DNA of 64,000 nt. Origin: a virus. Both the position numbers and the translations under genes were made by a program. The notes below the pieces were generated by a model. That model did not search any database. It was not told the origin of the DNA and saw nothing but the letters and a program-made list of their open reading frames with translations. The stretch lies in the IMG/VR virus record IMGVR_UViG_3300027754_000063, positions 25,277 through 89,276 of that record. One strand, given 5' to 3'. Below, piece after piece: positions 13,139-59,397 of this stretch. Each line of letters begins with the position of its first letter. Positions within the stretch are counted from its first letter, which is position 1.

Positions 13139-13380
13139 TAAAAATTTTTCCTAGAATAGCAATGAAAAATAGGAAAATGATAGAACAATCATCTTTAGTG
13201 GGATGCTATTCATGTTGCAAAATATTTGATTCAAAAGACGTAAAAGAATACACAGACCGTAATGAAACGGCATTATGCCCGCATTGCAACGTCGATTGCT
13301 TGGTCGGAAATCAATGCGGATTCGTTCTAGAAGAAAGTATATTAATAAAAGCACGCCAATACTGGTTTAATAATTGTTAA
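13135..13380 (+). CDS. Small zinc-ribbon-like protein
   Basis: An 81-residue protein whose ATG overlaps the portal stop (ATGA). Two Cys pairs, GCYSCCKIF and LCPHCNVDC, fit a zinc ribbon, and the segment ETALCPHCNVDCLVG followed by a helix ending ARQYWF recurs in small bacterial and phage proteins of unknown function. It is translationally coupled to the portal, so a head-assembly role or a simple hitch-hiker is possible. The 3' end overlaps the convergent gene by 14 bases. Confidence 0.72.
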   Translation: MIKIFPRIAMKNRKMIEQSSLVGCYSCCKIFDSKDVKEYTDRNETALCPHCNVDCLVGNQCGFVLEESILIKARQYWFNNC

Positions 13381-13744
13381 CTGCTGGGTTGGCATTAGGA
13401 TCCTTAGAAACATCACCTAAACCTTGTGTAATCATTCCGCTAACACGCTTGCCACCACGAGTTACGCCAGTTCTTAAGTCTGATAGTGACTCAAAGTCAT
13501 GTTGCTTTAGTATTGCTTCAACTGTATCTCTTACCTCTGGAATACTATTGCTTTGAGCTTTAAGCCACGATATAGCAGCACCCGGCCTTTCGCCAAGTAT
13601 TAACTCAAAAGCCTCTATTGCAGCACTTAAAGCAGCTTGTGTTCTTGCATCTAATCCAATGCTTCCCGCTCCTCCAAGCATCTCTTTGCCCATGTTCATG
13701 GCACTTATTTCTTGTAGTTTTACGTAATCTATAAATTTTTTCAA
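13367..13744 (-). CDS. Predicted capsid-targeted internal protein (TTG start)
   Basis: A 125-residue protein starting at TTG 13744, with AGGAGAG 7 bases upstream. The N-terminus MKKFIDYVKLQE|IS aligns with the T4 capsid-targeting peptide MKTYQEFIAE and contains an L-Q-E site that fits the (L/I)-x-E cleavage rule of gp21-type proteases. The rest is Gly/Ala-rich and helical (AALSAAIEAFELILGERPGA, TVEAILKQHDFESLSDL). It is encoded on the opposite strand inside the head region, between the portal operon and the core protein gene. An internal head protein is the best reading. Confidence 0.65.
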   Translation of the reverse strand: MKKFIDYVKLQEISAMNMGKEMLGGAGSIGLDARTQAALSAAIEAFELILGERPGAAISWLKAQSNSIPEVRDTVEAILKQHDFESLSDLRTGVTRGGKRVSGMITQGLGDVSKDPNANPAVNNY

Positions 13745-13850
13745 TGTATTACTCTCCTAATTTTTAGCTTAGATGTATATCTATGTATTAGTCACTAATA
13801 AAAAATTATTATATAAAAAAATATTTTATTTGTTAAAAATTTGCATTGAA

Positions 13851-13860
13851 TATATATATA
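13851..13860 (+). promoter_or_regulatory. Late-promoter-like AT box for the head operon
   Basis: TATATATATA followed by ACTC lies 39 bases before the ATG at 13900. It is the most likely start of the transcript carrying the core protein, protease, scaffold and capsid genes. Confidence 0.5.
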
Positions 13861-13899
13861 ACTCATTCGGATCAAACAATACAGGGAGTCAATTGACCT

Positions 13900-15744
13900 A
13901 TGAAAAGAAAACTAATTAGTTTCGATGTCTTCAAGAATCTTGAAGAACAGTCACTTACAAACGCTCAGAGAGAATTGGTTGAGGCTCAAGATGTTTTGGC
14001 CGAAGCACTAGGCGTAGAAAGCATCAAACTGTTTACCTTCGGAGAATCCGAAGTAACATATGAAGTACAAGATGGTACTTACATTCATGCAACATATACC
14101 ATAAAAGATAATAGCATCATATTAGAAAATATAGAGCAACTTGTTGTTGACGAAGAAGGCGAAAGAAAGAATACAAGAGAAATCATCTCGCAAATGGTGG
14201 AATCTATTATAAGCAATGATGAAAACAAAGCCAATCAAAAGTTTGAGCAGTACATAAATACACCCGCTGTTAAAAGAAGCCTAAACGAAGCAGCGTTCAA
14301 AGTTACAACATCAAGACCAACCGGTAAACGTTCTGAACTATGGCACAAGCGCCAGTCACGCTCAACGGTTGCTAAAAGAACCAGAGCTAGGAAAATGACA
14401 CTTTCCAGAATGTCACCTTCACAGAAGAAGCAACTCGCCAGAGCAAGAGCTATTGCGAAAAGAAAGTTGGGCGGCACGACAAACAGCAGAGCACGTGTTT
14501 ATGCAAGGAAAATCAAGAAAAGTCATATGAAAGAATGGAACACAATAATTGAAAATGTAACTAATTATATTAATTACAAACAATTCGGTTCTGTTATGAC
14601 TGAGTCCTTCGTAAAACATGATAAAAATGGAGAAATATCATCGCTATCAGTGCCAACAACCTCTAAAAGAAATGAAGGAAAGATTCTTTCTTTTAATTGG
14701 GACACAATGGATCACGAAGTAAAGTGCATGCGTAGCAAAATGAAGAATATAAAAGAAGATCAGAATTTTATCAAAGCTATGGCAGATCTAAAAAGATATA
14801 ACAACATATCAGACAACACTTCGCTAGAAAGTACATTGGAAGCTATTGTAACTCGTTGGCCTGAAATGATCTATATGACAGAGTCGGAACTAGCTACACA
14901 AATTTCAAAGGCACTAGAATCAGCAAATATTAAAAACTTTGATGATAAAACTTGCTTGTTTATGGCAGAAGCTGTGCTGCGAACTGCACACAATGCATAT
15001 GCAGACAGAGTTAAAAATATAAGCAAATTAGCCGGAGAAACAAAAGATGTAACAAGCGAATGCAAAGATTGCGAAGATGCTTATAATGACTTTAAAAATG
15101 TTGTAGAACAGTTTTATGTCAAATTAGACGAATCAGAAGAAAAAGAACTAAAGGTTTTTGAAGACCTGTTTAACGCTTTGAGAGAAGTACATGCTTTTGC
15201 TGTAGAAGCCGAAGACAAAGAAGAACTAGAAGAGATTGAAGGTCTTCTCGAAAGATGCGTTTCTGTACTTAAAAAAGAAAGCGAAATCGATCTTGAACTC
15301 GCAGAAGAAATGACAGACTATTTGGCATATTTCTCTGAGGCAAATGTCGATGGAGCATCACAGGATTGGGATGTCGAAGAGAAACCTCATCATTCCGTAT
15401 CAGGAAATCATCCTTATGTTGATAAACTTGCAAAATCAGATGCTGTAGCAAGTTTGTACAACGGTGACTGGAAAAGCCCAGCACCTGTGAGTGATGGAAA
15501 AAGTCACCATGGTAATCTTGATGATGAAATGAAAAATGATGGATGGAGCAATTGTGGAGGCGATGACACATGGCCAACACTAGATAATCCATATGTTCCT
15601 AAATCCGATACATATAAAATGAAAGAAAAGTCTGTTGTTGATGATGGTGATGAACTCGCTCAGAATCAATCAAATGACACATGGCCAAATTTGAGTAATC
15701 CTTATGCTAAAGTAGGAAAAAATACACCCAAAGACGTAGAGTAA
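13900..15744 (+). CDS. Head-region core/internal protein with capsid-targeting-like N-terminus
   Basis: A 614-residue protein at the position held in T4 by prohead-core genes 67/68, between portal and protease. The N-terminus ISFDVFKNLEE|QS resembles the other targeting tags and includes an L-E-E site. Residues 139-208 are strongly basic (RQSRSTVAKRTRARK, RARAIAKRKLGG, RARVYARKIKKS), suitable for DNA or scaffold contact. A long acidic helical region follows, and the C-terminus has two TWP-x-L-x-NPY repeats (DDTWPTLDNPYV, NDTWPNLSNPYA). The likely role is a prohead core component processed during maturation. GGGAGTC precedes the ATG. Confidence 0.7.
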   Translation: MKRKLISFDVFKNLEEQSLTNAQRELVEAQDVLAEALGVESIKLFTFGESEVTYEVQDGTYIHATYTIKDNSIILENIEQLVVDEEGERKNTREIISQMVESIISNDENKANQKFEQYINTPAVKRSLNEAAFKVTTSRPTGKRSELWHKRQSRSTVAKRTRARKMTLSRMSPSQKKQLARARAIAKRKLGGTTNSRARVYARKIKKSHMKEWNTIIENVTNYINYKQFGSVMTESFVKHDKNGEISSLSVPTTSKRNEGKILSFNWDTMDHEVKCMRSKMKNIKEDQNFIKAMADLKRYNNISDNTSLESTLEAIVTRWPEMIYMTESELATQISKALESANIKNFDDKTCLFMAEAVLRTAHNAYADRVKNISKLAGETKDVTSECKDCEDAYNDFKNVVEQFYVKLDESEEKELKVFEDLFNALREVHAFAVEAEDKEELEEIEGLLERCVSVLKKESEIDLELAEEMTDYLAYFSEANVDGASQDWDVEEKPHHSVSGNHPYVDKLAKSDAVASLYNGDWKSPAPVSDGKSHHGNLDDEMKNDGWSNCGGDDTWPTLDNPYVPKSDTYKMKEKSVVDDGDELAQNQSNDTWPNLSNPYAKVGKNTPKDVE

Positions 15745-15768
15745 TTTATAAAAAAAAGGAGTACGTTA

Positions 15769-16449
15769 ATGGAACAAAAACAAACACTTTTCGTAGATTG
15801 CTGCTGCAATTCTGGCTTTACTCTGGACTTAAATGAGTCCACTGAAAAAGGCACAACCGTTTTTAAAGGTAAATTCCAAGAAGCAGAGGCTGTTAATAAA
15901 AACAAAAGAATATACCCATATGCTGTATTAGATGAAAATGTTAAAAAACTAATACCAATAATCGAAGCAAGAGGACTTGTAGGTGAATTAGACCACCCAG
16001 CAGATAGTATTATTCATTTTGAAAAATGTTCCCACATAATTACTAAGCTATGGTGGGAAGGTAATAGCCTCATGGGACAAGGAGAGATACTGAACACACC
16101 ACACGGTAGAATATTAAAAGGATTGCTAAATGATGGCGTTAGAATAGGAATCAGTAGCCGTGGGGTAGGGAATGGGAAAAATGATGATAATGGTATTTTA
16201 ATAATTGGAGAAAGTTATAAACTCATCACGTTTGATGCTGTAGCTGATCCAAGTACATATTCTGCTTTTCAAGAAAAAGTAGTAGGGAAAAAAGAAAATT
16301 ATGAAGCACATGCAAACAAAGATCTTCAATTAACAAAAAAAGCAGAAAAAATTGACTCGAGCTGCATACATAAAGTTAACAAAGAAGCACTCATTGCTTG
16401 CTTGGGCGGAATAATAGAACAAAAAACAGAAACATTAAAGCGAGGTTAG
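15769..16449 (+). CDS. Prohead core protease (T4 gp21-like)
   Basis: Serine protease that degrades the scaffold and trims head proteins after Glu in (L/I)-x-E sites. It has 226 residues. Candidate catalytic residues are His76 in GELDHP, Ser130 in GISSRG and Asp156 in KLITFDAVADPS; their spacing (54 and 26) matches the T4 triad closely. The N-terminal VNKNKRIYPYAVL strand is family-typical. A ribosome site AAAAAAAGGAG precedes the ATG. It lies directly upstream of the scaffold gene, 6 bases apart, as in T4. It is the presumed processor of all the tagged proteins in this window. Confidence 0.93.
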   Translation: MEQKQTLFVDCCCNSGFTLDLNESTEKGTTVFKGKFQEAEAVNKNKRIYPYAVLDENVKKLIPIIEARGLVGELDHPADSIIHFEKCSHIITKLWWEGNSLMGQGEILNTPHGRILKGLLNDGVRIGISSRGVGNGKNDDNGILIIGESYKLITFDAVADPSTYSAFQEKVVGKKENYEAHANKDLQLTKKAEKIDSSCIHKVNKEALIACLGGIIEQKTETLKRG

Positions 16450-16455
16450 ACTAAT

Positions 16456-17355
16456 ATGGAAAAGATTGTAGAAGCATTAAGAAAACTTTTGCCAGAAAAT
16501 GAAATCAATGAGGTTTCATCCGCCGTTCAACAAATGTTGGAACAAGCAAAGCTTGATCTAGAAACAGAATTCAACGAGAAACTTGAAGAAGCGTATGGCG
16601 ACCTATCCAGCGAAGTAGCCGAAGCAGAAAAAATTGCAGAAGCTGGATATGAAGAAGCATATGCAATTATTGCAGATCTTAGAAACAGATTAGAAATTCA
16701 AGGCGAAGAATATAAAGCCGCATTAGAAGAAGGATACGAAGAAGCATACGAAATGCTCACCCAAGAAAAGGGAAAGAATCAAACACTCGAAGTAGAAATG
16801 TACGAAGAGTATGACAAAAAGCTTTCCGAAATGAAAGAATATATCGTAGACAAAGTCGACCAGTTCCTACAGTTTAAAGGTCAAGAGATTTATGAACAAG
16901 CTAAACTTGAGATCGTAAATGATCCTCGTATGGCAGAACATAAAGTCGCTCTTAACAAAATTGTAGACATAACTGCAAACTACCTGTCTGACGATGACTT
17001 TGCTGCTGTATCTTCAAATAAAGTTGAAGAAGCAAATAAGAAGATAGAAGAAATGAAAGGACAGCTTCGAATCATGGAAGCCCGCAACATCAGAGTTTCA
17101 ACAGAAAATACCAAGCTCAATGAAACCGTACGACACGCTCAAGAAGTAATCAACGAAAGCCGAAAAGCTGTCGTGGAAAGCAAAAAGGAAGCTGTCGTTA
17201 ACGAACAGAAAGAAAGAACTGAAAAAGCAAAGAATGTAACGGGGAGAGGAAGAACAAGTGATGGTGAAGTCGTATCGGAATACGCATCACCCAATAATAA
17301 TAATTCTGGTGCAGATCAATTATTGATCCTATCAGGATTGAAACAAGCTCAATAA
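16456..17355 (+). CDS. Prohead scaffold protein (T4 gp22-like)
   Basis: A 299-residue, highly acidic and almost entirely helical, coiled-coil protein with many Glu/Ala (GYEEAYAIIADLRNRLEIQ, LEEGYEEAYEMLTQEK). The central part (VDQFLQFKGQEIYEQAKLEI) is typical for gp22 scaffolds. It forms the core on which the capsid assembles and is degraded by the protease encoded just upstream. Tandem similarity between GYEEAYAII and GYEEAYEML suggests internal duplication. The C-terminus (LLILSGLKQAQ) is the usual short hydrophobic end. It is followed 29 bases later by the capsid gene. Confidence 0.9.
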   Translation: MEKIVEALRKLLPENEINEVSSAVQQMLEQAKLDLETEFNEKLEEAYGDLSSEVAEAEKIAEAGYEEAYAIIADLRNRLEIQGEEYKAALEEGYEEAYEMLTQEKGKNQTLEVEMYEEYDKKLSEMKEYIVDKVDQFLQFKGQEIYEQAKLEIVNDPRMAEHKVALNKIVDITANYLSDDDFAAVSSNKVEEANKKIEEMKGQLRIMEARNIRVSTENTKLNETVRHAQEVINESRKAVVESKKEAVVNEQKERTEKAKNVTGRGRTSDGEVVSEYASPNNNNSGADQLLILSGLKQAQ

Positions 17356-17384
17356 ATTTAACTCATATAAATTATAAGGAAAAT

Positions 17385-18824
17385 ATGAACGCAAATTCGC
17401 AATTTCTCAATGAAGCAAAAGAGTTAGAATCTCGCTGGGCGCAGACAGGTCTCCTCGAAGGCATTACAGACAGGTTCACTCGATCTGCTACAGCGGTTCT
17501 ACTCGAAAATCAAAGGCTTATGAACGAAGCCAGCACCGACACAGGTGACGTTGCTCAGTTCAAACGAATCAGTATACCACTCGTTCGTCGTATCTATCCA
17601 CAGCTTATCGCTAACAAAATTGTTAGCGTTCAGCCACTACTCGGACCAACAGGTCTAGTGTATTATCTCCGATTCCGATATGGTAGCAATAAGGGTGCAA
17701 CTCGAGGTGCTGACAAGAACGGTTTCCCAACTGATGATGCAAACAGCTTGATGCAGTTGGCAGACGGTACTGCCAATTTAGATATTTTCTATAGCAGCCA
17801 GTTCGTTCAGAATGAAGTATCCAATACGGATACAGGCACCGGAACCACAGTTGTGTACACCGGAACTGAACACACTCCAATCCTAGCAGGAACCATCACT
17901 GGTACTGTTTATGATAATGCTACTGCAATTCAGACGTTTGTTGTATCAGCGGCTGGCGTTTTTACATTTACTGATATTGGTAGTCCAAATCCTAAAGCTC
18001 AATCTGCTGGATCAAGCGTTAACACAACAACGGGCGAACTAACAGTTGTGTGGACCGGTGTTGCAGGAGATAATCATCTTGTATTCAGCTATGAATACAA
18101 TATGGAATGTAATCAGGATCTACCAGAAATCAACCTAGTTATTGAGTCAGAAGAAATTGCTGCAAAAACACGCAAGCTAAAAGCTGTGTGGAGCTATGAA
18201 GCTCAGCAAGATCTACGCTCACAGCACAATCTTGATGCTGAAGCTGAGTTGACTGCTGTTCTAGCTCAGGAAATTAACCTTGAAATCGACCGTGAAGTTC
18301 TAACCGATCTTCGTAACAATGCTGGTACCGTATCAGCTTGGGATTTCAATACCGCTCTTGGTGATACCATCAAAGAGAAGTATGAATCACTATATGTTAA
18401 GGTTGTCGAAATCAGCAACGTAATTCATCGTAAGACATTACGTGGTGGTGCCAATTGGCTCGTAACAAGCCCAGAAGTTGCCTCAATATTTGAGACGGCA
18501 ACCGCCGGCTTCGCTCCAGCCCCAAGTGAGACGTTCACAAGCTCACTCGGTGTTCAGTATGTTGGTACTGTCAATAACAGATGGAGACTCTACAAGGATC
18601 CACTATTCCCAAGCAATCAGGTATTGATGGGATATAAGGGCGACAGCTACATGGACAGCGGATATTTCTACTGCCCATACGTGCCACTCACCCAGACTCC
18701 AGTGGTTCTTGACCCAGAATCCTTCTGCCCACGCAAGGGAATCTTGACTCGTTACGGAAAAAAATTATTAAGGGAAGGGGCAAAATTCTACGCCAGATTA
18801 TCTATCGCTAATTTTGTGATATAG
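17385..18824 (+). CDS. Major capsid protein (T4 gp23-like) with inserted domain
   Basis: A 479-residue HK97-fold capsid protein. ESRWAQTGLLEGI and TAVLLENQRLMNEAS are the classic gp23 N-terminus; cleavage near LMNE|A is likely. Family signatures are RRIYPQLIANKIVSVQPLLGPTG, ANWLVTSPEVASIFET and the C-terminal YGKKLLREGAKFYARL. Residues about 141-242 form an Ig-like domain (GTITGTVYDNATAIQTFVVS, GVFTFTDIGSP, SYEYN) that reappears in the protein at 51938-52732. GC content is higher than its surroundings, consistent with codon selection for very high expression. It is followed by a strong terminator. Confidence 0.96.
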   Translation: MNANSQFLNEAKELESRWAQTGLLEGITDRFTRSATAVLLENQRLMNEASTDTGDVAQFKRISIPLVRRIYPQLIANKIVSVQPLLGPTGLVYYLRFRYGSNKGATRGADKNGFPTDDANSLMQLADGTANLDIFYSSQFVQNEVSNTDTGTGTTVVYTGTEHTPILAGTITGTVYDNATAIQTFVVSAAGVFTFTDIGSPNPKAQSAGSSVNTTTGELTVVWTGVAGDNHLVFSYEYNMECNQDLPEINLVIESEEIAAKTRKLKAVWSYEAQQDLRSQHNLDAEAELTAVLAQEINLEIDREVLTDLRNNAGTVSAWDFNTALGDTIKEKYESLYVKVVEISNVIHRKTLRGGANWLVTSPEVASIFETATAGFAPAPSETFTSSLGVQYVGTVNNRWRLYKDPLFPSNQVLMGYKGDSYMDSGYFYCPYVPLTQTPVVLDPESFCPRKGILTRYGKKLLREGAKFYARLSIANFVI

Positions 18825-25926: not shown

Positions 25927-26100
25927 TCAGTTTTTCTTCAAAGAAGCGTTCTTTTTCTTTTTTATAGATTTTTTCCCACAATTTAAATCAGAAAGTGCAC
26001 CCCAAATTTGAAAATTAGCATTACTTCTATCTTTGCAACCTACTATGGCATCACCGCCTGCGTTCTCTTTAATTTTTAACCAATTATAAAATGTTTTCAT
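25927..26100 (-). CDS. 57-residue protein with capsid-targeting-like N-terminus
   Basis: Below the size limit of usual ORF calling. It begins MKTFYNWLKIKE|NAGGD: MKT-aromatic-x-x-aromatic-hydrophobic matches T4 MKTYQEFIAE, and I-K-E fits the protease cleavage rule. The remainder ends in a strongly basic tail (CGKKSIKKKKNASLKKN), suitable for DNA binding inside the capsid. The segment DAIVGCKDRSN recalls DSIVGCKVELK in the tagged protein at 59116-59397. It lies just upstream of a metallophosphoesterase gene on the same strand. Confidence 0.65.
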   Translation of the reverse strand: MKTFYNWLKIKENAGGDAIVGCKDRSNANFQIWGALSDLNCGKKSIKKKKNASLKKN

Positions 26101-26183: not shown

Positions 26184-26891
26184 TTATGATACGGCTGCAC
26201 TGAACGGAGTAACCTCGGTGGCAGTCTGAGTAAGAACAGCTTTTACATGGAATAATCCGGCGGCAATGTCGAGTATTTCAACATAATTTCCTCTTCTACC
26301 ACCTTTGGTAGAGCCATCCATAGTAATCGTATCATCGGTTCCACCTGCAATCCACATATCGATTGCTGTAGGCGTACCAGTCAGTGGTGTCTCGTCATCT
26401 GAACCAAAAGCAACTCCGGTCATTACGTCAGTAGCATTAGCGACCTGAACTACGTATGTACCAGGACTTACAACAAGAGTATCTACATAAAACTTATAAT
26501 TATTACCAGATCCAGATGCGGCTGGAAGCGTTGCAACAACGCCTGCGGCTCTTGTTAAAACGAGCGGCACATTAGCATGTGTGGCGGCTGTAAGCGTCAC
26601 AGTCGCTGTATTTAGAACCACAGGGGCTTTTGATAGAGCGGTATTTGCTATCTTCGCCTGCGTAACGGCTAAAGCATCTAATTTAGCAGTTGTAACGGCT
26701 AGAGCATCTAATTTAGCAGTTGTAACGGCTAGAGCGGCTAATTCGGCGGTTGAAATCGCTGAATCTGCGACGTCTACATTTACAACAGCATCTGTTGCCA
26801 AATTAACTGTTTTAACGACACCATTTAATATTCTTGGTTTTAGTAGCTCGACAGAGCCAGGACCAGTACCTTCAGTTGTTTGTGTTGACAT
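26184..26891 (-). CDS. Fibre-like structural protein A (paralogue of 37446-37997)
   Basis: A 235-residue protein. It opens with MSTQTTEGTGPGS, then a 10-residue tandem repeat LAVTTAKLDA (three copies) of the type that forms trimeric fibre stalks, then a beta-rich head (ANVPLVLTRAAGVVATLPAA, YKFYVDT, YVEILDIAAGLFHVKAVLTQ) ending TPFSAAVS. Compared with its paralogue it carries the extra repeats. The C-terminal halves and the downstream terminator are nearly identical, which shows duplication or gene conversion. A minus-strand AATATATAATGTA box (26920-26932) precedes it. A short tail-fibre or head-fibre role is inferred. Confidence 0.75.
   Translation of the reverse strand: MSTQTTEGTGPGSVELLKPRILNGVVKTVNLATDAVVNVDVADSAISTAELAALAVTTAKLDALAVTTAKLDALAVTQAKIANTALSKAPVVLNTATVTLTAATHANVPLVLTRAAGVVATLPAASGSGNNYKFYVDTLVVSPGTYVVQVANATDVMTGVAFGSDDETPLTGTPTAIDMWIAGGTDDTITMDGSTKGGRRGNYVEILDIAAGLFHVKAVLTQTATEVTPFSAAVS
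26671..26760 (-). repeat. Three 30-base tandem repeats in fibre-like gene A
   Basis: Units at 26671-26700, 26701-26730 and 26731-26760 encode LAVTTAKLDA; the third has diverged, and a degraded fourth unit lies at 26641-26670. Repeat-number change would alter stalk length. Confidence 0.88.
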
Positions 26892-33506: not shown

Positions 33507-33548
33507 ATGCAATTTAATCAATGGTTAGAATGTAATAATACCAGATAG
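33507..33548 (+). pseudogene. Orphan capsid-targeting leader (13 codons), probably a gene remnant
   Basis: ATG at 33507 after AAGGG encodes MQFNQWLECNNTR and then TAG. The first eight residues closely resemble the leader of the gene that starts 90 bases downstream (MNFKQWLV). It has its own ribosome site and start but no body, so it is either the fossil of a duplicated tagged gene or a free leader cassette. Confidence 0.5.
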
Positions 33549-33596: not shown

Positions 33597-34112
33597 ATGA
33601 ATTTTAAACAGTGGTTAGTTAGTTGCAAGTCACCAAGTATTTTTGAAAACTCTAAAGGCTTAGACTTCTTGCGGGCTGACAGCTCTGAACGTGCTAGATT
33701 CCAGTCCCTAAGTCAGCAAATAGATCAAGCATATGCGATAAAAGATTATAAAAAAGCAGAAGAACTAGAAGTTGAATTAGAAGACCTGTCTAATAATTTG
33801 GAAGATAAACTAAGTGATATTGGTCAAGAAGGTGGAGAGGAAGATGATGTTGATCAAGATTGGAGTGTTCAAGATGACTTTGCAAATATATATGCTAGAT
33901 ATTTAAGCAATAAGATAAGCGATGCTGATATTTTCCCTATTCTTAAAGATGCTATACTTGCACCTAATATTAATTTATCTTTTCCAAATATGAAGCTAAT
34001 AAATAGTCTTGACAAAGAGTCTTTACTTGCGATGGCAAAAGATGCTTATTTACATAAGAAAAATATGCATGCTTCTTTAAAAGGAGCCGGTAGTTTGTGG
34101 GGTAAAAAGTAA
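33597..34112 (+). CDS. Capsid-targeting-tagged protein coupled to the PARP-like gene
   Basis: A 171-residue protein, MNFKQWLVSCKSPSIFE|NSKG: the tag F-x-x-W-L is followed by I-F-E, a possible protease cleavage site. The body is acidic and helical (AYAIKDYKKAEELEVELEDL, DKLSDIGQEGGEEDDVDQDW), ending HASLKGAGSLWGKK. The stop TAA overlaps the ATG of the PARP-like gene (TAATG), and the last two sense codons AAA AAG are a possible slip site, so the tag protein could pilot or even be fused to the downstream protein. AGGAATAAT precedes the ATG. Confidence 0.72.
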   Translation: MNFKQWLVSCKSPSIFENSKGLDFLRADSSERARFQSLSQQIDQAYAIKDYKKAEELEVELEDLSNNLEDKLSDIGQEGGEEDDVDQDWSVQDDFANIYARYLSNKISDADIFPILKDAILAPNINLSFPNMKLINSLDKESLLAMAKDAYLHKKNMHASLKGAGSLWGKK

Positions 34113-37445: not shown

Positions 37446-37997
37446 TTATGCTACGGCTGCACTGAACGGAGTAGCTTCGGTACCAGTCTGAGTCAAGTAA
37501 GCTTTTACAACGAACAATCCAGCGGCAATGTCGAGTATTTCTACGCTGTCGCCTTTGTATCCACCTTGTGTGCTACCATCCATTGTGAACGTATCGCTTG
37601 TAGACGAGGTTGCCCATCCATTGCCTGGTTCTCCGTCGCCATCATCACCGAACGCCTGACCTTGAATTACGTCAGTAGCATTAGCGACCTGAATTTTATA
37701 TGAATTCGATGTAACAGTAGTATCTACATAAAATTTATAACTATTGCCAGATCCAGATGCTTTTGGAAGCGTTGCAACAACGCCAGCAGCTCTTGTTAGC
37801 ACTAGTGGTAAATTAGCGTGAGTTTCGGCTGTGATCGTCACAGTCGATGCACTTAGAACCACAGGTGCTGAAACTGCTAGCTTTTCTCTTGTTACTGCTT
37901 TTGCCGCTAAATTTGCGGTTACGATTTTATTACGAATAATTGGGTAAACAGATTCTATAGATCCATTTCCTGTACCCATTGTTGTTTGTGTGCTCAT
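37446..37997 (-). CDS. Fibre-like structural protein B (paralogue of 26184-26891)
   Basis: A 183-residue protein with the same N-terminus (MSTQTTMGTGNGS), the same core (VVATLPKASGSGNSYKFYVDT, VEILDIAAGLF) and the same end (TPFSAAVA) as protein A, but it lacks the LAVTTAKLDA stalk repeats (only TANLAAKAVTREKLAV remains). Preceded by a minus-strand TATATACAATGTA box at 38038-38050. The role is presumably in the same virion structure; two versions could give alternative receptor binding or stalk lengths. Confidence 0.75.
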   Translation of the reverse strand: MSTQTTMGTGNGSIESVYPIIRNKIVTANLAAKAVTREKLAVSAPVVLSASTVTITAETHANLPLVLTRAAGVVATLPKASGSGNSYKFYVDTTVTSNSYKIQVANATDVIQGQAFGDDGDGEPGNGWATSSTSDTFTMDGSTQGGYKGDSVEILDIAAGLFVVKAYLTQTGTEATPFSAAVA

Positions 37998-38862: not shown

Positions 38863-39430
38863 ACAACAAATTCCAATTGCTTTTACTCCAATCAATAAAT
38901 TTTCTTTCTGCCGCAACGGGACCTACTTCACTTGTTTTACCAGTAGTTTGTAGTTCTAGTTCATGTGTTGCTTCATGTATTATTGTGGAGGCTATTTCTA
39001 ATATCGCTTGTGGAGTGTCTCCAAGCTGTTTTAGTATTTTTTGTATGTTTACATGTATTGTATCAGAAGGTATTATCTGTTTTTCATCCAGATCAGGAAG
39101 ATATTGTTTTAACACTGCATTTGGTAATGTTTGTAATTTTTTATCTAACATAATATCTTTAGGAAACAACAACTTCATTTTATCTAATACTTCTTTTCCT
39201 ATAACCTTATTATTTTCAGATGACATATACATGCCATAGACTCCGGAAGATAGAGGAGCTATTGTACTTATATTGGTTAATAGTTTTTGATTTGTCATTT
39301 TATCATATAGCTGAACAATTTGCACAGATATTTTTGCTTTCTCGTATAGCACATCTATTTTAGATGAATCAACAAGTTCTGTTCCAACTGTTGTTTGTTC
39401 AAGCCATTTTGCAAAATGCATAGAATTCAT
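38846..39430 (-). CDS. Capsid-tagged zincin metalloprotease-like protein
   Basis: A 194-residue protein beginning MNSMHFAKWLEQTT, carrying the F-x-x-W-L-E tag. Near the C-terminus TIIHEATHELELQTTG is an HExxH zinc site, with a Glu in SEVGPVAAERKFIDW as possible third ligand. It starts at an ATG overlapping the stop of the next tagged gene (ATGA), so both are made together. The best reading is a protease packaged in the virion and delivered into the host, or one acting during head maturation. The substrate is unknown. Confidence 0.72.
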   Translation of the reverse strand: MNSMHFAKWLEQTTVGTELVDSSKIDVLYEKAKISVQIVQLYDKMTNQKLLTNISTIAPLSSGVYGMYMSSENNKVIGKEVLDKMKLLFPKDIMLDKKLQTLPNAVLKQYLPDLDEKQIIPSDTIHVNIQKILKQLGDTPQAILEIASTIIHEATHELELQTTGKTSEVGPVAAERKFIDWSKSNWNLLSKKFF

Positions 39431-39690
39431 TTCTTAGAAGCAGGTTTTACTGTTTTCTGTATAAGTTTTACAAATTCACTATCGCTTAGATATGTTTTAG
39501 GATTTTTTACTAGTTTTGCAACGAGTTCTTTTCCTTTTGGAGAGGACAAGTCATCCCATACTTTCTTTCTTGTACTAATATCATATTTAGAAAATACATC
39601 TCTTAGTGCGTCTACAATTGATACAACTGCTTTTGTTTTGTTACTAGAGTTCTCAGCTTCTTGTATAATCCAATCTTGAAATTTTTTCAT
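39427..39690 (-). CDS. Small capsid-tagged protein
   Basis: An 87-residue protein, MKKFQDWIIQE|AENSS. The N-terminus aligns residue by residue with T4 MKTYQEFIAEA, and I-Q-E fits the protease cleavage rule. The body is helical and basic at its end (LVKNPKTYLSDSEFVKLIQ, KPASKK). The following zincin gene overlaps by four bases. An internal head protein or a partner of the zincin is likely. Confidence 0.7.
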   Translation of the reverse strand: MKKFQDWIIQEAENSSNKTKAVVSIVDALRDVFSKYDISTRKKVWDDLSSPKGKELVAKLVKNPKTYLSDSEFVKLIQKTVKPASKK

Positions 39691-46313: not shown

Positions 46314-46868
46314 TCATGCCTTTTTGAGATATGCCCTATCATATCTTAAAATTAGGTCGCACATAACTATGTCGCTACTCGCCATATCTAAATCTCCAAA
46401 GTCAATAGAGTTAGGCCACACATGATCGAAACCCCATTTTTCTATAACATTTCCACATCCATCATAAAGCTCTAATTCTGCATCATGCTTTTTGAAGTTT
46501 TCTCCTGATGTAGTAGGAACAACGTCTGCAAGGCAAGACGGAACATATGTGCCTTTTTCTGGATCATATAGTTTTTTTAACCATTCGAATATAGGATGTT
46601 CATTTTTTTTAAGGTCATATAATGTTAAGGCAACAGGTTTCCAATCGGGTTTTCCTGGATAATAAATAGTTTCTGTAAGATGCTGTGCTTCTATCTCTTT
46701 GAACGTAATAGTAGGTCTAGCTGATTTGTGTGGAGCTAAAGCATTAATCCCCTCAGCACTGATATCTTTTATTGTAAAAAGCCAACGAAATTTTCTTTTA
46801 AAACAGGTTGACTCATCATCTAGCCCAAGACCTTTAACTGCTCCGGGACCCATATCTTCTAATTTCAT
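46314..46868 (-). CDS. Tail tube protein paralogue (T4 gp19-like)
   Basis: A 184-residue protein. KRKFRWLFTIKDIS, RPTITFKEIEAQHL, YYPGKPDWKPVALTLYDL, ELELYDGCGNVIEKWGF and DFGDLDMASSDIVMCDLILRYD match the gp19 tube family and align with the protein encoded just upstream. Two tube-like genes in tandem behind the sheath gene suggest one main tube protein and one tube-end, initiator or terminator version. Which is which cannot be told; the second gene is more diverged from the usual gp19. Confidence 0.85.
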   Translation of the reverse strand: MKLEDMGPGAVKGLGLDDESTCFKRKFRWLFTIKDISAEGINALAPHKSARPTITFKEIEAQHLTETIYYPGKPDWKPVALTLYDLKKNEHPIFEWLKKLYDPEKGTYVPSCLADVVPTTSGENFKKHDAELELYDGCGNVIEKWGFDHVWPNSIDFGDLDMASSDIVMCDLILRYDRAYLKKA

Positions 46869-46957: not shown

Positions 46958-47578
46958 TTAGTTGCAGCCAGCACAGCATGGTTCTACTGTTCCGTTGCAT
47001 CGTGGGGTGTATGTGACTTCACTGTAACGAAGAGTTAGTTCCAACGTTACTTCTTCCGAAGAAGAATAGTCTAATTCACCAAAATTCACTGCCTGTGGCC
47101 ATACGTGGTTTAGCTCCCAGCTTTCAAGAGATGTACCACAGCCGTCATAAAGATCAATATAAGCAGTAGCTGCATATCCCTGTCCGCCGCCGCCTCTTTG
47201 ACCTTTCTTAGAAGCTTGTGAATACGGAACCTGCTTGCCTGTGAAGTTAAAAGTCGTGGCAAGCCAACTGTAAAGAGCTGTCATGCCCTGTACGGTATCA
47301 GGACCAGCAATATCATAGAACGTGACCGTAATCGTTTCCCAGCTTGCTTTTCCTGGAATCCACATCTTGCTATTTAGAAAATTTATTTCAGTTTCTTCAA
47401 TAGTTAGATTTGGTCTTGAGGCAAGCTTAACATAGAAAGGTGCAATGCGTCCGCCTGAGCAATTCGTCTTTAGCTCAAACGTCCACCTATATTTCCTCTT
47501 GAACACTACATTGTCTCCACCAAGTTGATCCATACCCATGTCGGTCAATTTGGCACCCGGTGCAAAAGCATTAGGCAT
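46958..47578 (-). CDS. Tail tube protein (T4 gp19-like)
   Basis: A 206-residue protein directly downstream of the sheath gene, the T4 18-19 order. Motifs are FKRKYRWTFELKTN, RPNLTIEETEINFLN, WIPGKASWETITVTFYDI, YIDLYDGCGTSLESWELN, WPQAVNFGELDYSSSEEVTLELTLRYS. The stacked hexamer rings form the inner tail tube. The C-terminus adds a Cys-rich tail (CNGTVEPCCAGCN) not expected in gp19. A Gly-rich loop lies in the middle. AAAAAGGAG precedes the start, and expression is probably the higher of the two paralogues because of the hairpin behind it. Confidence 0.9.
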   Translation of the reverse strand: MPNAFAPGAKLTDMGMDQLGGDNVVFKRKYRWTFELKTNCSGGRIAPFYVKLASRPNLTIEETEINFLNSKMWIPGKASWETITVTFYDIAGPDTVQGMTALYSWLATTFNFTGKQVPYSQASKKGQRGGGGQGYAATAYIDLYDGCGTSLESWELNHVWPQAVNFGELDYSSSEEVTLELTLRYSEVTYTPRCNGTVEPCCAGCN

Positions 47579-51937: not shown

Positions 51938-52732
51938 ATGGTTTTAGTTGTACCTGACAGTGCAGATGTTTTAATGTTAAAATTCATTTTAAACAACATT
52001 ACAACCACTGGATCTGCTCCTGTATCTGGTGGAGATAGAAGATTAAGATTGTTTACCAATGATATAATACCATATAAGTCTACTATATTGGGCGATCTCG
52101 TTGAAGCAAGCAACACAGGATACGCAGCTATACCTTTGGTTGGCACGAGTTGGGTGGTTTCCACAACAGATGCCCCTCATATTATATCATGTGGAAATCT
52201 ACAACGAACTAGCCATTTAGTTCAAAACGAGGTTTCTAATGTTGATGTTGGAGCGGTTGAACCATTACCAGCAACTTATTACTCTGTATATACTCATTCT
52301 GATAATATTCCAATTTTAGAAGGAACAATTAGCGGGACAGTTTACAGTGCATCTGTAGCCATACAAACTTTTGTTGTTTCTTGTGCTGGAGTCTTTACAT
52401 TCACAGACATTGGATCTCCAGCCGTAAAATGTAAAACTTCTGGATCAAGTGTAAACAATGTCACAGGAGTTATTACTTTGGCGTGGATTGGAATGCCAGC
52501 CGCTAATTATATCACGTTCAATTATGAATATGATGCGTGTCATAAGAAGACAACAGCTTCTTATTCTATTCAAACCTTTTCTATGACCCAAGCTGCCGAT
52601 GTATATGGTTATTATATAACTAATGTAGGCGGAACGCAACTTTTGTGGGCAGAGAGATTTCCGCATGCACCATTTATCATACCGAATTGGGGTGGAAATA
52701 TAACAGTCACATTAAACTTTACATTGGATTGA
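51938..52732 (+). CDS. Virion protein sharing a domain with the major capsid protein
   Basis: A 264-residue beta-rich protein. Residues about 95-200 (QNEVSNVDVG, IPILEGTISGTVYSASVAIQ, TFVVSCAGVFTFTDIGSP, GSSVN, YITFNYEYD) align with residues 141-242 of the major capsid protein along their whole length, including the flanking QNEVSN. The N-terminal part (LMLKFILNNITTTGSAPVSG) and C-terminal part (SMTQAADVYGYYITNVGGTQ) resemble phage structural proteins with immunoglobulin-like folds. It is followed after 3 bases by the gene at 52736. A decoration or adaptor role is suggested. Confidence 0.75.
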   Translation: MVLVVPDSADVLMLKFILNNITTTGSAPVSGGDRRLRLFTNDIIPYKSTILGDLVEASNTGYAAIPLVGTSWVVSTTDAPHIISCGNLQRTSHLVQNEVSNVDVGAVEPLPATYYSVYTHSDNIPILEGTISGTVYSASVAIQTFVVSCAGVFTFTDIGSPAVKCKTSGSSVNNVTGVITLAWIGMPAANYITFNYEYDACHKKTTASYSIQTFSMTQAADVYGYYITNVGGTQLLWAERFPHAPFIIPNWGGNITVTLNFTLD

Positions 52733-54635: not shown

Positions 54636-54639
54636 TGTT

Positions 54640-55942: not shown

Positions 55943-55957
55943 TTTTTATTTTTGTTT

Positions 55958-56962: not shown

Positions 56963-57027
56963 TGTGTTTTATCCTTTACTTTGTACTTCTACTACTAATG
57001 CCGTACTTCATTATAACTATACACTTG

Positions 57028-57261
57028 TTATTTTCCAAATTCTATTTTAGATCCTTCTTCAAAACTTGGTATTTCCCAAGCAAAATCTTCTTCTTTTTTA
57101 ATTTTTTTCTCTAATTCTGTTTCTATTGATTTTCTTTCTATACCTTGTGATAACAAACCTTCTGTATTCATATTGATATTGATATCTAACGTCAGCGATA
57201 CCTGTATTTCGCCTTCTTTTGTTATTATTTTTACATTTCCTGGTTTAATTAAAGACGCCAC
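57028..57261 (-). CDS. Small protein upstream of the actin-like gene (GTG start)
   Basis: A 77-residue protein from GTG 57261 with GGTGG upstream. It has a beta-rich N-terminus (LIKPGNVKIITKEGEIQVSL, TLDININMNTEGL) and an acidic C-terminal helix ending SFEEGSKIEFGK. Its stop lies 65 bases before the actin-like start. An adapter or filament-binding role is possible because such partners are small and adjacent. Confidence 0.58.
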   Translation of the reverse strand: MASLIKPGNVKIITKEGEIQVSLTLDININMNTEGLLSQGIERKSIETELEKKIKKEEDFAWEIPSFEEGSKIEFGK

Positions 57262-57358
57262 AATACCACCTTTAAATTATAAAGTTGTTCATTCTATTTA
57301 GTGGAATATGTGCTTTTTTTAAACTAAAAACTTTCGCAAAAACAGCATATATCCATAA

Positions 57359-57940
57359 TTAGCTTGTAGGAACACTTCGGACAGAAATGATTGTTTGAAC
57401 GGATGAACTGCTACCACTGCTATTGCTTAATTCAAGCTTGGTAATTGTTATATCTCCATAATTAAAAACTTGAGTATTACCACTTTCCAAAGAAAAAACA
57501 GCGTTTGCTATACCATTAATTCTAATTGAAACATCTCCGGTGCCTATATTGTGGATTTGAACAAATTGAGCAGGACCGCCGTTGTCGCCAAGTATATCAA
57601 TAAGATTATCATCATAAGTTGAATCATCATCAACAGTTAAGGAATATACTCTTGGAAAATTGTTTTCCTCAGGTATATCACTGTATACAGAGCCATCATC
57701 AGTTACTACTGCTATAAATGCGTCTTGTTGAGATACTTGTGGATAAGAAAAGCGTTTCCAGTAATTGCAGTCTGTGAATGTCTCTCCATCTTTTAAATTT
57801 CGATAAATTCTTCCTGGCCCTGACACATATATCGTTCTTTGCACAGAAGGATCCATTTGAGCGTATGGCGATAAAACAGAAGGGTTTAAATCCAAACTAC
57901 CTTGGCTTACGTTATTTAGAACTACTCGGAATACACTCAT
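57359..57940 (-). CDS. Virion structural protein
   Basis: A 193-residue all-beta protein: MSVFRVVLNNVSQGSLDLNP, QRTIYVSGPGRIYRNLKDGE, FVQIHNIGTGDVSIRINGI and YGDITITKLELSNSSG. Such proteins with a Ser-rich C-terminus occur among virion proteins of large myoviruses. A TATATATAATGTA late element is 26 bases upstream, supporting late expression. The exact place in the virion is unknown. Confidence 0.68.
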   Translation of the reverse strand: MSVFRVVLNNVSQGSLDLNPSVLSPYAQMDPSVQRTIYVSGPGRIYRNLKDGETFTDCNYWKRFSYPQVSQQDAFIAVVTDDGSVYSDIPEENNFPRVYSLTVDDDSTYDDNLIDILGDNGGPAQFVQIHNIGTGDVSIRINGIANAVFSLESGNTQVFNYGDITITKLELSNSSGSSSSVQTIISVRSVPTS

Positions 57941-57964
57941 TTGTTACTTTCTATTATGCAAATA

Positions 57965-58627
57965 TTACATTATATATATATTGATTATTTGATTGTTTGG
58001 AAATAATTTTTTAAATAAATTCTCCCCGATTCCAGTAGGCACTAAAATAGTTTGCATGCCAGTAGAAGCCGCTTTATATAAATATTCATTTTCAACACCA
58101 AATACAGCATCAAATTCATTATAATCTATTGGATTAATATCCACAGAATATTCATTGCTTTCAATTATTTCAATAGCTTTCTTTATTTGCGAACCAGTAA
58201 GAGATTTTGTTGGAAAGCAACCGTTTGTTAGAAGAGCACATCTTTTTAAATGGTTTTTACCTGTATTTTTAAGAGTGATATCACATGAAAAATTAGGGAA
58301 ATTTGTCAAAGCAATACTTTGGAATTCTATGTCAGATTCGACCATAAGATTTTCCACAGGGTGAAAATCTATATTATCTGAAATTTCTTTTACATAGGAC
58401 AAGCTATTTTTATTGTTTATTAATTCTGTTCTAGAAAAAACTTTTTTTTCATACTTAAGAACATGAATTGAATCATCTTGGCATGCTATATACATCTGAA
58501 GACCGGGAAAAGAGGATTCTATTGTTGGTCTTAATAAAGACAATTGAACAAGATATTCTCTGTTATTTCCATAATAAGCAACACAAAAATTATTCTTTAT
58601 TTTAACGTAGTTAGGCAGTGTAATCAT
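57965..58627 (-). CDS. GT-B-type glycosyltransferase-like protein
   Basis: A 220-residue protein. FCVAYYGNNREYLVQLSLLR at the start and DAVFGVENEYLYKAASTGMQTILVP at the end resemble the sugar-nucleotide binding halves of GT-B transferases (G-x-E...AA-x-G). It is short for a whole GT-B enzyme, so a single-domain or truncated form is possible. The start codon overlaps that of the divergent small gene at 58626. Donor and acceptor unknown. Confidence 0.5.
   Translation of the reverse strand: MITLPNYVKIKNNFCVAYYGNNREYLVQLSLLRPTIESSFPGLQMYIACQDDSIHVLKYEKKVFSRTELINNKNSLSYVKEISDNIDFHPVENLMVESDIEFQSIALTNFPNFSCDITLKNTGKNHLKRCALLTNGCFPTKSLTGSQIKKAIEIIESNEYSVDINPIDYNEFDAVFGVENEYLYKAASTGMQTILVPTGIGENLFKKLFPNNQIINIYIM
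57966..57978 (-). promoter_or_regulatory. Late-promoter-like element TATATATAATGTA
   Basis: Minus-strand element 26 bases upstream of the virion gene at 57940, overlapping the end of the gene at 57965. Identical to the one at 33432-33444. Confidence 0.55.
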
Positions 58628-58781
58628 TCAAAAAATTCCTTACGATCAAGCCTTAGTTGGCACGGATGCTATTAAGGCATTTACAAAACAATTTGGATCA
58701 ATGGACGATCATATAAATAGAATTATTTTAGAAGAAGTTCTAAAATTATTGCTAAATTACAAAGAAGGCGAAAATGGTTGA
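58626..58781 (+). CDS. Small protein with apparent ATT start
   Basis: A 51-residue frame (QKIPYDQALVGTDAIKAFTKQ, MDDHINRIILEEVLKLL, NYKEGENG) ending in a TGA that overlaps the next ATG (ATGGTTGA). The frame opens at 58611 with no ATG, GTG, TTG or CTG before residue 26. ATT at 58626 follows AGG at 10 bases. The helical coding pattern and start/stop overlap with 58774 suggest a real gene. Its beginning overlaps the divergent glycosyltransferase-like gene, so the ATT start is less certain than for the CYTH gene. Confidence 0.45.
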   Translation: MQKIPYDQALVGTDAIKAFTKQFGSMDDHINRIILEEVLKLLLNYKEGENG

Positions 58782-59136
58782 ACTTTATCTTTATCTTACA
58801 AAAAGAGATAAAAAAGGAATGAGAATAATTGCAAAGTTCTTGTCAAAAGAACAATCTGCGATTAGAATCACAGAAGATAATATAACAAATCTTTCAATTC
58901 CAATCAATATATTAAATGATATCAACAAAAAAATTTATGATTCTAGAATGATGTGGGAAGTTTGGGCAGAATCCTCAGACAGCTATGTATCTCTTAAAAA
59001 ATTACTTAAAAAAAGAGGATACAAAAATATACCAATGAGTGCACAACCGGAAATTATGACGTTAACAATTGAATTAGATAACCGGTTAGAAAATAAAAAG
59101 CCTATGATTCAAAAACTAGCTGATCACAACATGTAA
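58774..59136 (+). CDS. Hypothetical protein
   Basis: A 120-residue protein coupled to the upstream small frame. ELYLYLTKRDKKGMRIIAKF, IRITEDNITNLSIPINILN, DSRMMWEVWAESSDSYVSLK and KRGYKNIPMSAQPEI suggest a compact alpha/beta domain. A TATAAATA octamer (58712-58719) lies 54 bases upstream inside the previous frame and could serve as a late promoter. The 3' end overlaps the convergent tagged gene by 21 bases. Confidence 0.65.
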   Translation: MVELYLYLTKRDKKGMRIIAKFLSKEQSAIRITEDNITNLSIPINILNDINKKIYDSRMMWEVWAESSDSYVSLKKLLKKRGYKNIPMSAQPEIMTLTIELDNRLENKKPMIQKLADHNM

Positions 59137-59397
59137 TTTATTTAATTCTATTTTACCATTATTGGTTTCTATTGTTACAATATTACCAAACTTTTCTGTT
59201 ACGATGCCTCCATTTATTCGGAAGTCTTTTAATACTTTGCGTGCATCGCCTTCAATTACTTCAGCTATTAGAGAAAGTTTTTTTGTTGATTCTTTTAATT
59301 CTACTTTGCAACCAACAATAGAATCTTTTTCTTCTTTTGAATGGGATATCCATTTTTTAAAATCACTAAAATTAAAATTAAACGGATCGTTGCTCAT
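59116..59397 (-). CDS. Capsid-tag-like protein
   Basis: A 93-residue protein, MSNDPFNFNFSDFKKWISHSKEE..., carrying an F-x-x-W-I tag at residues 13-17 and an SKEE stretch that could be cut by a Glu-specific protease. The segment DSIVGCKVELK closely resembles DAIVGCKDRSN of the tagged 57-residue protein at 25927-26100, which suggests common descent of the region after the tag. The rest is a small beta domain (GGIVTEKFGNIVTIETN, IELNKLHVVIS). Confidence 0.62.
   Translation of the reverse strand: MSNDPFNFNFSDFKKWISHSKEEKDSIVGCKVELKESTKKLSLIAEVIEGDARKVLKDFRINGGIVTEKFGNIVTIETNNGKIELNKLHVVIS

What the first reader, a model, noticed from the sequence alone, without database searches (positions are those of the whole stretch)
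13367..59397. A family of unrelated proteins sharing a T4-like capsid-targeting tag
At least seven ORFs begin with the pattern M-x(0-4)-F-x-x-[WFY]-[LIV]: 9412 (MFYFKKWLE), 13367 (MKKFIDYVKLQE), 25927 (MKTFYNWLKIKE), 33597 (MNFKQWLV), 38846 (MNSMHFAKWLEQ), 39427 (MKKFQDWIIQE), 59116 (FSDFKKWIS), plus 13900 (ISFDVFKNLEE) and an orphan leader at 33507 (MQFNQWLE). It aligns residue by residue with the T4 capsid-targeting peptide MKTYQEFIAEA. Five have an (L/I)-x-E site directly afterwards (LQE, IKE, IQE, IFE, LEE), and the gp21-type protease that would cut it is encoded at 15769. The bodies differ (zincin, acidic partner of a PARP-like protein, small basic proteins). This looks like a module for loading and injecting effectors, scattered across the genome and including genes of 13-57 codons that ORF callers miss.
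Basis: partly seen in the sequence, partly recalled or inferred. Interest (0 to 1): 0.92.

Follow-up and report, generated by a model that had tools for sequence, protein, structure and literature searches.

The report
Head-packaging tag on many phage proteins
A large group of uncultured giant phages, to which this stretch of DNA belongs, puts the same short starting peptide on dozens of otherwise unrelated proteins, very probably to load them into the virus head and inject them into the bacterium with the DNA.

Summary
The window belongs to an 89-kb fragment of a T4-like giant-phage lineage; its nearest named relative is LR756511 (595 kb). A tag profile trained on LR756511 alone finds 7 of 104 called genes in the window's record (0.20 expected), plus three ORFs missed or mis-started. 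Over the clade (training genome included) 113 of 3,229 distinct proteins reach 10 bits (1.3 expected), in 77 body families.

Applied blind to T4, it ranks IPI-III within the top five of 269 genes. [LIV]-x-E protease sites are phased to two positions, one T4's. In LR756511 tagged genes carry late-type boxes (33/61 vs 54/874).

A partly tagged Ntn-hydrolase family has its predicted catalytic Cys directly after an invariant [LIF]-x-E: probably a zymogen activated in the head.

The principle is T4's capsid targeting sequence; scale, enzyme cargo and zymogen appear new. Packaging and injection are inferred: no virion proteomics was available.

The parts
   Evidence: profile 8.4 bits; five pattern-matching proteins share its body
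9412..9639 (-). probably tagged small protein, 75 aa (MFYFKKWLEN...)
   Evidence: 7.4 bits; 18 pattern-matching proteins cluster with its body (which clustered pattern-matching proteins only); look-alikes in L066, L071, L072, L169 score 9.3-17.3
13367..13744 (-). tagged protein antisense and upstream of the core gene, 125 aa, TTG start, tag + KLQE
   Evidence: 8.2 bits; 48 pattern-matching members, 32 distinct; in 26 of these, aligned, the only invariant column is the tag Phe (members were chosen by the pattern); nine further homologues that the pattern had not caught also start with aromatic-x-x-aromatic
13900..15744 (+). conserved prohead-core-region protein, 614 aa; tag-like start MKRKLISFDVFKNLEE is weak
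   Evidence: 4.4 bits; start conserved in LR756511 as INYDVFQKISE; function by position only
15769..16449 (+). prohead protease of the S77 (T4 gp21) family, the likely processing enzyme
   Evidence: PF03420 E 6e-27; PHROG 207 E 2.7e-48
16456..17355 (+). probable scaffold (gp22 position), 299 aa; possible binding partner of the tag
   Evidence: position between gp21 and gp23; no PHROG match at E<=0.001; inference
17385..18824 (+). major capsid protein gp23; probable propeptide cut after LMNE (Glu48)
   Evidence: PHROG 138 E 7e-85; L-[MIFY]-N-E in all 79 of 80 loci in which the search motif (which fixes L-x-N-E) was found; the cut itself is inferred
25927..26100 (-). tagged small basic protein, 57 aa (MKTFYNWLKIKE)
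   Evidence: 11.6 bits; LR756511 123745-123909 (54 aa) looks alike by eye
33507..33548 (+). orphan leader ORF MQFNQWLECNNTR, 13 codons, 48 bases upstream of the tagged gene 33597
   Evidence: 11.0 bits; one of five of 1248 open ATGs in the window at >=11; expression not shown
33597..34112 (+). tagged protein, 171 aa (MNFKQWLV), directly before the 897-aa gene 34112
   Evidence: 13.7 bits
38846..39430 (-). tagged putative zinc metalloprotease (HEATHE), 194 aa
   Evidence: 12.9 bits; four further distinct IMG/VR homologues, found by body or start patterns, all start with F-x-x-[WF]-[ILV]; the LR756511 homologue has W at the first aromatic and scores below threshold
39427..39690 (-). tagged partner overlapping the metalloprotease start, 87 aa (MKKFQDWIIQE)
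   Evidence: 15.5 bits; tagged look-alikes in L072, L110 and, next to the metalloprotease, L257
42641..43201 (-). gp55-like late sigma factor, the likely reader of late promoters
   Evidence: PHROG 234 'late sigma transcription factor' E 1e-7
   Evidence: 2.7 bits at residue 13, homologue -1.0; DFKKWIS/DFRKWMS lies in the alignable body

Best explanation
The tag is a T4-type capsid targeting sequence used on a far larger scale. Step 1 (shown by sequence): genes scattered through the genome start with M-K-[ST]-F-x-[EQD]-[WFY]-[LIVF], expected to form a short amphipathic helix. Step 2 (inferred from T4): during late infection the tag binds the prohead core and carries its protein inside. Step 3 (site shown, cutting inferred): the S77 protease at 15769 cuts after [LIV]-x-E at tag position F+6 or F+8 in those that have a site, freeing the body. 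Step 4 (inferred): the bodies leave with the DNA and act at once in the new host. The cargo includes enzyme domains suited to counter-defence or host takeover (Acb1/2H phosphoesterase, DUF3293/SAM-lyase-like, Nudix, RNA-repair-like, GNAT, papain-like and probable zinc peptidases). In an Ntn-hydrolase family a protease-type site lies exactly before the predicted catalytic Cys, so head maturation would also switch the enzyme on.
For: Profile trained on LR756511 alone ranks ipII, ipIII and ipI 2nd, 3rd and 5th of 269 T4 genes. Tag positions not used for selection are constrained as in T4: F-1 is S/T/N/D in 28 of 41 (p 1.7e-10), F+2 is E/Q/D in 27 of 41 (p 3.9e-13). 113 of 3229 distinct clade proteins at >=10 bits vs 1.3 expected, 77 body families (training genome included). 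One representative per body family, pattern-only selection (97 families): [LIV]xE with E at F+6 16.6 vs 7.8 expected, at F+8 10.9 vs 1.7. 13367 family: the tag Phe is the only invariant column of 26 (chosen by pattern), and nine homologues outside the pattern keep aromatic-x-x-aromatic. Late-type boxes TA[AT]ATA: 33/61 vs 54/874 within 22 bases in LR756511, 5/13 vs 23/630 within 22 bases in a 532-kb relative, 42/73 vs 313/1304 within 60 bases in other loci. In LR756511 tagged proteins are basic, median pI 8.4 (n 60) vs 6.5 (n 912), p 4.5e-4, as T4 internal proteins are (PMC9026906, passage). Ntn family: Glu-Cys invariant in 8 of 8 aligned sequences; model pTM 0.83; in 37 of 50 listed rows the structural alignment starts at model Cys15, against residue 126 of human NAAA, 143 of human ceramidase, 1 or 2 of penicillin V acylases and bile salt hydrolases.
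Against: No proteomics for this clade was available. Only 26 of 77 body families (one representative each, >=10 bits) have a phased site. E at F+7, F+11, F+14 and F+16 is also somewhat above expectation. The packaged T4 protein Alt is not among the six T4 genes at >=6 bits, and dmd, not known as packaged, ranks 4th. The late-promoter signal is not significant in the window's own record (5/10 vs 26/84, p 0.19). Not all T4-like giant phages have the tag: LR756508 3 of 721 vs 1.9 expected, Atu_ph07 4 of 680 vs 1.6 in its first 400 kb of 490. In the Ntn family only two of seven distinct leaders carry the aromatic tag, and an S77 gene was found on 4 of 9 contigs tested, fragments. In 89 of 292 homologue pairs the partner does not score 6 bits: some wrong starts, some real lack of tag, some chance (e.g. 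L142). The training set was chosen by pattern, so LR756511 counts are circular.
Confidence: 0.82

Rival explanations
1. The tag is a prohead-core docking peptide, but most carriers are scaffold or structural head parts rather than injected effectors.
For: The most widespread carrier (13367 family) lies a few kb upstream of gp23 in many loci; T4 IPIII also affects head form (PMC9026906, passage); late-type promoters.
Against: Bodies include enzyme domains with no evident structural role: NUDIX, Acb1-like, DUF3293, C39, GNAT, HAD, cREC, AAA_33; fast turnover: 51 of 104 genes of the window's record have a homologue in LR756511, and only 3 of its 8 called tagged genes do.
Confidence: 0.1
2. The tag localises proteins elsewhere, for example to a membrane, to replication foci or to the tail, and resembles T4's capsid tag by convergence on an amphipathic helix.
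For: An amphipathic N-terminal helix can serve many ends; no direct evidence of packaging.
Against: Residue-level agreement with T4 at selected and unselected positions and blind recovery of T4 internal proteins; phased head-protease-type sites; late-type promoters.
Confidence: 0.06
3. The pattern is chance or a compositional effect of AT-rich starts.
For: Single items such as 59116, the record-21222 protein and L142 are weak, chance or fold-related matches.
Against: 113 vs 1.3 expected among 3229 distinct proteins with composition-preserving shuffles; no comparable excess in LR756508 or Atu_ph07.
Confidence: 0.01

Closest known systems
T4 internal proteins IPI, IPII, IPIII and their capsid targeting sequence (CTS)
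   Same: N-terminal tag of about 10 residues, aromatic residues 4 and 7, hydrophobic residue 8, Glu at residue 10 in a subset; S77 protease with L/I-x-E sites; unrelated bodies, often basic; scattered genes
   Different: T4 has three (at least 10 reported across T-evens, PMC12373910 passage); here 53 ORFs score >=10 bits in one 595-kb genome (the training genome; 0.6 expected among its called genes). Trp preferred at residue 7; a second site phase at F+8; enzyme cargo
T4 Alt (injected ADP-ribosyltransferase)
   Same: enzyme packaged in the head, processed by gp21, injected (PMC9026906, passages)
   Different: Alt does not score with this tag profile; no ADP-ribosyltransferase family among the Pfam matches of the tagged proteins scanned
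SPN3US ejection proteins (phiKZ-like giant phages)
   Same: giant phage with many head-packaged, protease-processed proteins
   Different: several of their propeptides exceed 100 residues and only one is of CTS length (PMC5694885, passage); another capsid lineage (recalled)
Ntn hydrolases of the NAAA / acid ceramidase / isopenicillin N acyltransferase / bile salt hydrolase group
   Same: predicted fold and N-terminal catalytic Cys position
   Different: the bond before the Cys is an invariant [LIF]-x-Glu|Cys, a head-protease-type site, instead of self-cleavage or Met removal (latter recalled)

Membership tests
T4-type capsid targeting sequence | aromatic at residue 4 and residue 7 of an N-terminal peptide | tested here: met
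   selection pattern; 113 of 3229 distinct proteins at >=10 bits vs 1.3 expected
T4-type capsid targeting sequence | agreement at positions outside the selection pattern | tested here: met
   F-1 and F+2, p 1.7e-10 and 3.9e-13, 41 training sequences
T4-type capsid targeting sequence | profile recognises the proven T4 members | tested here: met
   IPI, IPII, IPIII: 3 of 3 in the top 5 of 269; Alt, whose propeptide differs, not recovered
T4-type capsid targeting sequence | L/I-x-E cleavage site at residue 8-10 | tested here: inconclusive
   enriched at F+6 and F+8, but present in 16 (F+6) and 10 (F+8) of 77 families
T4-type capsid targeting sequence | S77 prohead protease in the same genome | tested here: met
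   window 15769-16449; 14 of 14 further records tested, tag-poor ones included
T4-type capsid targeting sequence | drives packaging into the head | not testable with these tools
   needs proteomics or a reporter assay
Ntn hydrolase (NAAA/AAT/choloylglycine group) | fold | tested here: met
   Foldseek E 2.4e-8 to 2x1c_A; VIA-align Z 19.8, rmsd 3.2 over 200 residues to 6dy1_B
Ntn hydrolase (NAAA/AAT/choloylglycine group) | N-terminal nucleophile Cys at the alignment start | tested here: met
   37 of 50 listed rows start at model residue 15; Cys invariant in 8 of 8
Ntn hydrolase (NAAA/AAT/choloylglycine group) | exposed Cys after cleavage and hydrolase activity | not testable with these tools
   needs expression with and without the protease
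zincin metalloprotease (38846) | HExxH motif | tested here: met
   HEATHE; H-E-x-T-H invariant in 6 aligned sequences
zincin metalloprotease (38846) | zincin fold | tested here: inconclusive
   model pLDDT 66.8, pTM 0.56; no PDB match at E <= 0.001
PARP-like / ADP-ribosyltransferase (34112) | sequence match to an ART family | tested here: inconclusive
   no Pfam or PHROG family at E <= 0.1, no ART among PDB sequence matches; fold not tested

The most novel reading that the evidence does not exclude
A widespread lineage of giant T4-like phages has turned the T4 capsid tag into a general secretion-like signal: dozens of exchangeable proteins per genome, among them enzymes (anti-CBASS, SAM-lyase-like, Nudix, RNA-repair, peptidases, acyl hydrolases), are expressed late, loaded by one peptide, and some are made as zymogens that the head-maturation protease activates by exposing a catalytic N-terminal Cys. 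The virion head is thus a protein-delivery device comparable to a bacterial injection system.
Probability: 0.55. Interest if true: 0.88.

Novelty: new variant of a known kind. Interest (0 to 1): 0.76.

Why it matters
The tag gives a sequence rule for predicting which of the hundreds of unknown proteins of giant phages travel in the virion and act first in the host, which is otherwise learnt from proteomics of cultured phages. It yields ready lists of candidate anti-defence proteins, and the Ntn-hydrolase family offers a testable case of an enzyme switched on by capsid maturation.

Tried and rejected
Rejected items: 59116 (2.7 bits at residue 13, inside a conserved body), the record-21222 protein and its LR756511 homologue (conserved N-terminal domain), L142 TnsA-like (homologues untagged), 34112 as PARP-like. 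34112 starts MSFSGIIL and scores 7.1, close to chance.

Led nowhere: Pfam and PHROG on most tagged bodies (no family); zincin fold search (poor model); cellular relatives of the Ntn family (31 pattern matches, none confirmed); relatives of the tagged 694-aa protein of LR756511 in the phage records (only its own record); virion proteome of Atu_ph07 as an independent test (131 virion proteins in PMC6102473, passages read, but its first 400 kb shows no clear tag excess). S-PM2, Syn9 and HTVC008M have 2, 1 and 1 hits at >=8 bits (0.15, 0.35, 0.30 expected), too few to use. Late-promoter test in the window's own record: not significant.

Print searches: (listings; open-licence papers only); none listed a survey of this tag outside T-evens. 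PMC9026906: sections 9 and 10 read in full, other passages. PMC12373910, PMC9391042, PMC5694885, PMC9697503, PMC9723584, PMC7162821, PMC6102473: passages only. Mullaney and Black 1996 and Repoila 1994: only as cited there.
Full report
Setting. The window is bases 25277-89276 of an 89,276-base virus record. Its gp23 is 78.9% identical to that of LR756511.1, an uncultured 595-kb phage, then 44% to LR756508.1 (484 kb). IMG/VR holds 251 stretches that encode a relative of this gp23, of which the best 80 were kept, on contigs of up to 532,729 bases. The head and tail genes are T4-like: terminase, portal, S77 protease, gp23, sheath, tail tubes, and there is a gp55-like late sigma factor. The finding is therefore about a giant-phage clade.

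Is the pattern real? I built a position profile from 41 LR756511 starts chosen by [FY]-x-x-[WFY]-[LIVF]. Columns not used in the choice turned out to be constrained: S/T/N/D before the first aromatic (28 of 41), E/Q/D two after it (27 of 41), K/R one after it (16 of 41). The first two fit the T4 tag. On genomes not used for training, the profile at >=8 bits finds 7 of 104 genes in the window's record (0.20 expected), 13 of 819 in a 532-kb relative (0.85) and 109 of 1756 in 111 loci (4.6; some loci overlap on one contig). Over 3229 distinct clade proteins, 113 reach 10 bits against 1.3 expected and fall into 77 body families by blastp (LR756511, the training genome, is included there). Pattern alone gives 153 against 27.5, so about 18% of pattern-only matches are chance. 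Controls: LR756508 3 of 721 against 1.9, Atu_ph07 4 of 680 against 1.6 in its first 400 kb. The tag is a property of this clade, not of giant phages in general.

Is it T4's capsid tag? The profile never saw T4. In T4 its five best of 269 genes are gp61.1, ipII, ipIII, dmd and ipI (names). IPI-III are all in the top five; by my arithmetic the chance is about 3 in a million. Alt, also packaged but with another leader, is not recovered. T4 residues 4 and 7 govern targeting, and residues 8 and 10 processing (PMC9026906, section 10). These are the tag's first aromatic, second aromatic, hydrophobic residue and F+6.

Is it cut? Of 145 distinct tags, 85 have [LIV]-x-E in the next 17 residues against 44.5 when shuffled; 24.5% of 998 untagged proteins do. 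The profile may favour Glu, so I repeated the test with pattern-only selection and one member per body family (97 families): E at F+6 16.6 against 7.8 expected, E at F+8 10.9 against 1.7; F+7, F+11 and F+14 are at about twice expectation, F+16 at 3.0 against 1.6, the rest near or below it. So there are two preferred frames, one T4's, one two residues further. At >=10 bits, 26 of 77 families have one of them. The others may be cut at looser sites or not at all. In the 13367 family the tag Phe is the only invariant column of 26 aligned members. These were chosen by the pattern, so part of that is by construction; but nine homologues that the pattern had not caught also start with aromatic-x-x-aromatic, two of them after an N-terminal stretch that may be a wrong start.

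A zymogen. A family found first beside gp23 (L073, L074 and others) starts with the tag and then reads LNE-Cys or FNE-Cys. All eight aligned members, down to 35% identity, have Glu-Cys at this point, with L, I or F two residues before the Glu, although their leaders differ in length and sequence. The AlphaFold2 model (pLDDT 78.5, pTM 0.83) matches Ntn hydrolases: isopenicillin N acyltransferase precursor at E 2.4e-8, NAAA at Z 19.8. In 37 of 50 listed rows the alignment starts at model residue 15, the Cys; the partner residues include 126 of human NAAA, 143 of human ceramidase and 1 or 2 of acylases, which entry titles in the same list name as the Cys mutated to block processing or activity. 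Ntn hydrolases need that residue to be N-terminal (established knowledge). The simplest reading is that the head protease exposes the nucleophile. Reservations: five of the seven distinct leaders lack the aromatic tag; the S77 gene was found on 4 of 9 contigs tested, fragments. In 79 of 80 loci gp23 carries L-[MIFY]-N-E near the expected propeptide end, the same kind of site; that search required L-x-N-E, so it shows what stands at x rather than that the site is always there.

When are tagged genes expressed? In LR756511, 33 of 61 tagged genes have TA[AT]ATA within 22 bases of the start codon against 54 of 874 untagged (p 5e-21), piled up at -10 and -11, and Shine-Dalgarno-like stretches are rarer (14 of 61 against 439 of 874). 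This resembles T4 late promoters (consensus recalled) set so that transcripts would begin at or near the start codon. The excess is also seen in the 532-kb relative (5/13 vs 23/630 within 22 bases) and the other loci (42/73 vs 313/1304 within 60 bases), but not significantly in the window's own AT-rich record (5/10 vs 26/84 within 60 bases).

Cargo. Pfam was run on 20 of 61 LR756511 candidates, 20 from other loci and 10 of 23 from the 532-kb relative. Above Pfam's cut-off: HAD_SAK_1, Peptidase_C39 families, tRNA_lig_CPD, DUF5661, AAA_33, cREC, GNAT, NUDIX, DUF3293, 2_5_RNA_ligase2 and Acb1 (and TnsA-like in L142, which I reject as untagged). Below it: among others AAT, SAM lyase, CxxCxxCC, PGDYG. 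The Acb1-like protein's own tag is modest (7.8 bits); the NUDIX and DUF3293 proteins score 19.1 and 10.6; the GNAT neighbour in L259 was recognised by eye. Most bodies match nothing. In the window: a HEATHE metalloprotease (38846) whose four further distinct IMG/VR homologues (five loci) all start with F-x-x-[WF]-[ILV], its overlapping tagged partner (39427), and small proteins of unknown function. Acb1 and SAM lyases are known counter-defence proteins (recalled), and T4's three internal proteins block type IV restriction enzymes (PMC12373910, passages), so injected counter-defence is the likeliest common role.

Known or new? The principle is known: T-even internal proteins share only their leader, and at least ten have been reported (PMC12373910, passages); PMC9026906 suggests the tag is a way for T4-like phages to load various proteins. 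What I did not find in the ten print searches (listed under Tried and rejected) is its use on dozens of proteins in one genome, outside T-evens, with enzyme cargo, or an Ntn zymogen activated by the head protease. I call it a new variant of a known kind.

Verdict. Packaging, cutting and injection remain inferences until proteomics or a reporter assay is done.

Noticed in passing
LR756511 loci L009-L038, upstream of tagged genes: T4-late-like boxes TA[ATG]ATA sit 10-11 bases before the ATG (29 matches among 61 tagged genes) with few Shine-Dalgarno-like stretches, as if late transcripts were leaderless.
   Followed up: partly
L241, L073, L246-L252: Viral Ntn-hydrolase family with an invariant [LIF]-x-Glu directly before the predicted catalytic Cys, and no confirmed relative in the GTDB genome scan.
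   Followed up: yes
T4 NC_000866 18966-19130 (L175): gp61.1 (54 aa, unknown function) is the best T4 match of the giant-phage tag profile, above the three internal proteins: a candidate further packaged protein.
   Followed up: no
window 34112-36805: 897-aa protein; a stretch around residues 260-500 recurs in giant phages Atu_ph07, Lu11, HRDY3, LR756504 and LR756502 without a clear annotated function.
   Followed up: no
window 51938-52732: Small protein whose residues 91-203 are 43% identical to residues 151-256 of the LR756511 major capsid protein: possibly a domain shared with gp23.
   Followed up: no
window 46314-46868 and 46958-47578: Two neighbouring tail tube paralogues, both PHROG 4542.
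   Followed up: no
window 26184-26891 and 37446-37997: Two genes share the start MSTQTTxGTGxGS: paralogues or a shared N-terminal module.
   Followed up: no
G001 315000-315569 (L195) and 459469-459861 (L202): Tagged proteins matching anti-CBASS Acb1 (E 2e-8) and DUF3293 / SAM lyase (E 2.5e-17 / 3.8e-6, the latter just under Pfam's cut-off).
   Followed up: partly
record bases 195-560, before the window: Repetitive ORF (TLRSSDALYSL repeats) at the start of the record, perhaps an assembly end effect.
   Followed up: no
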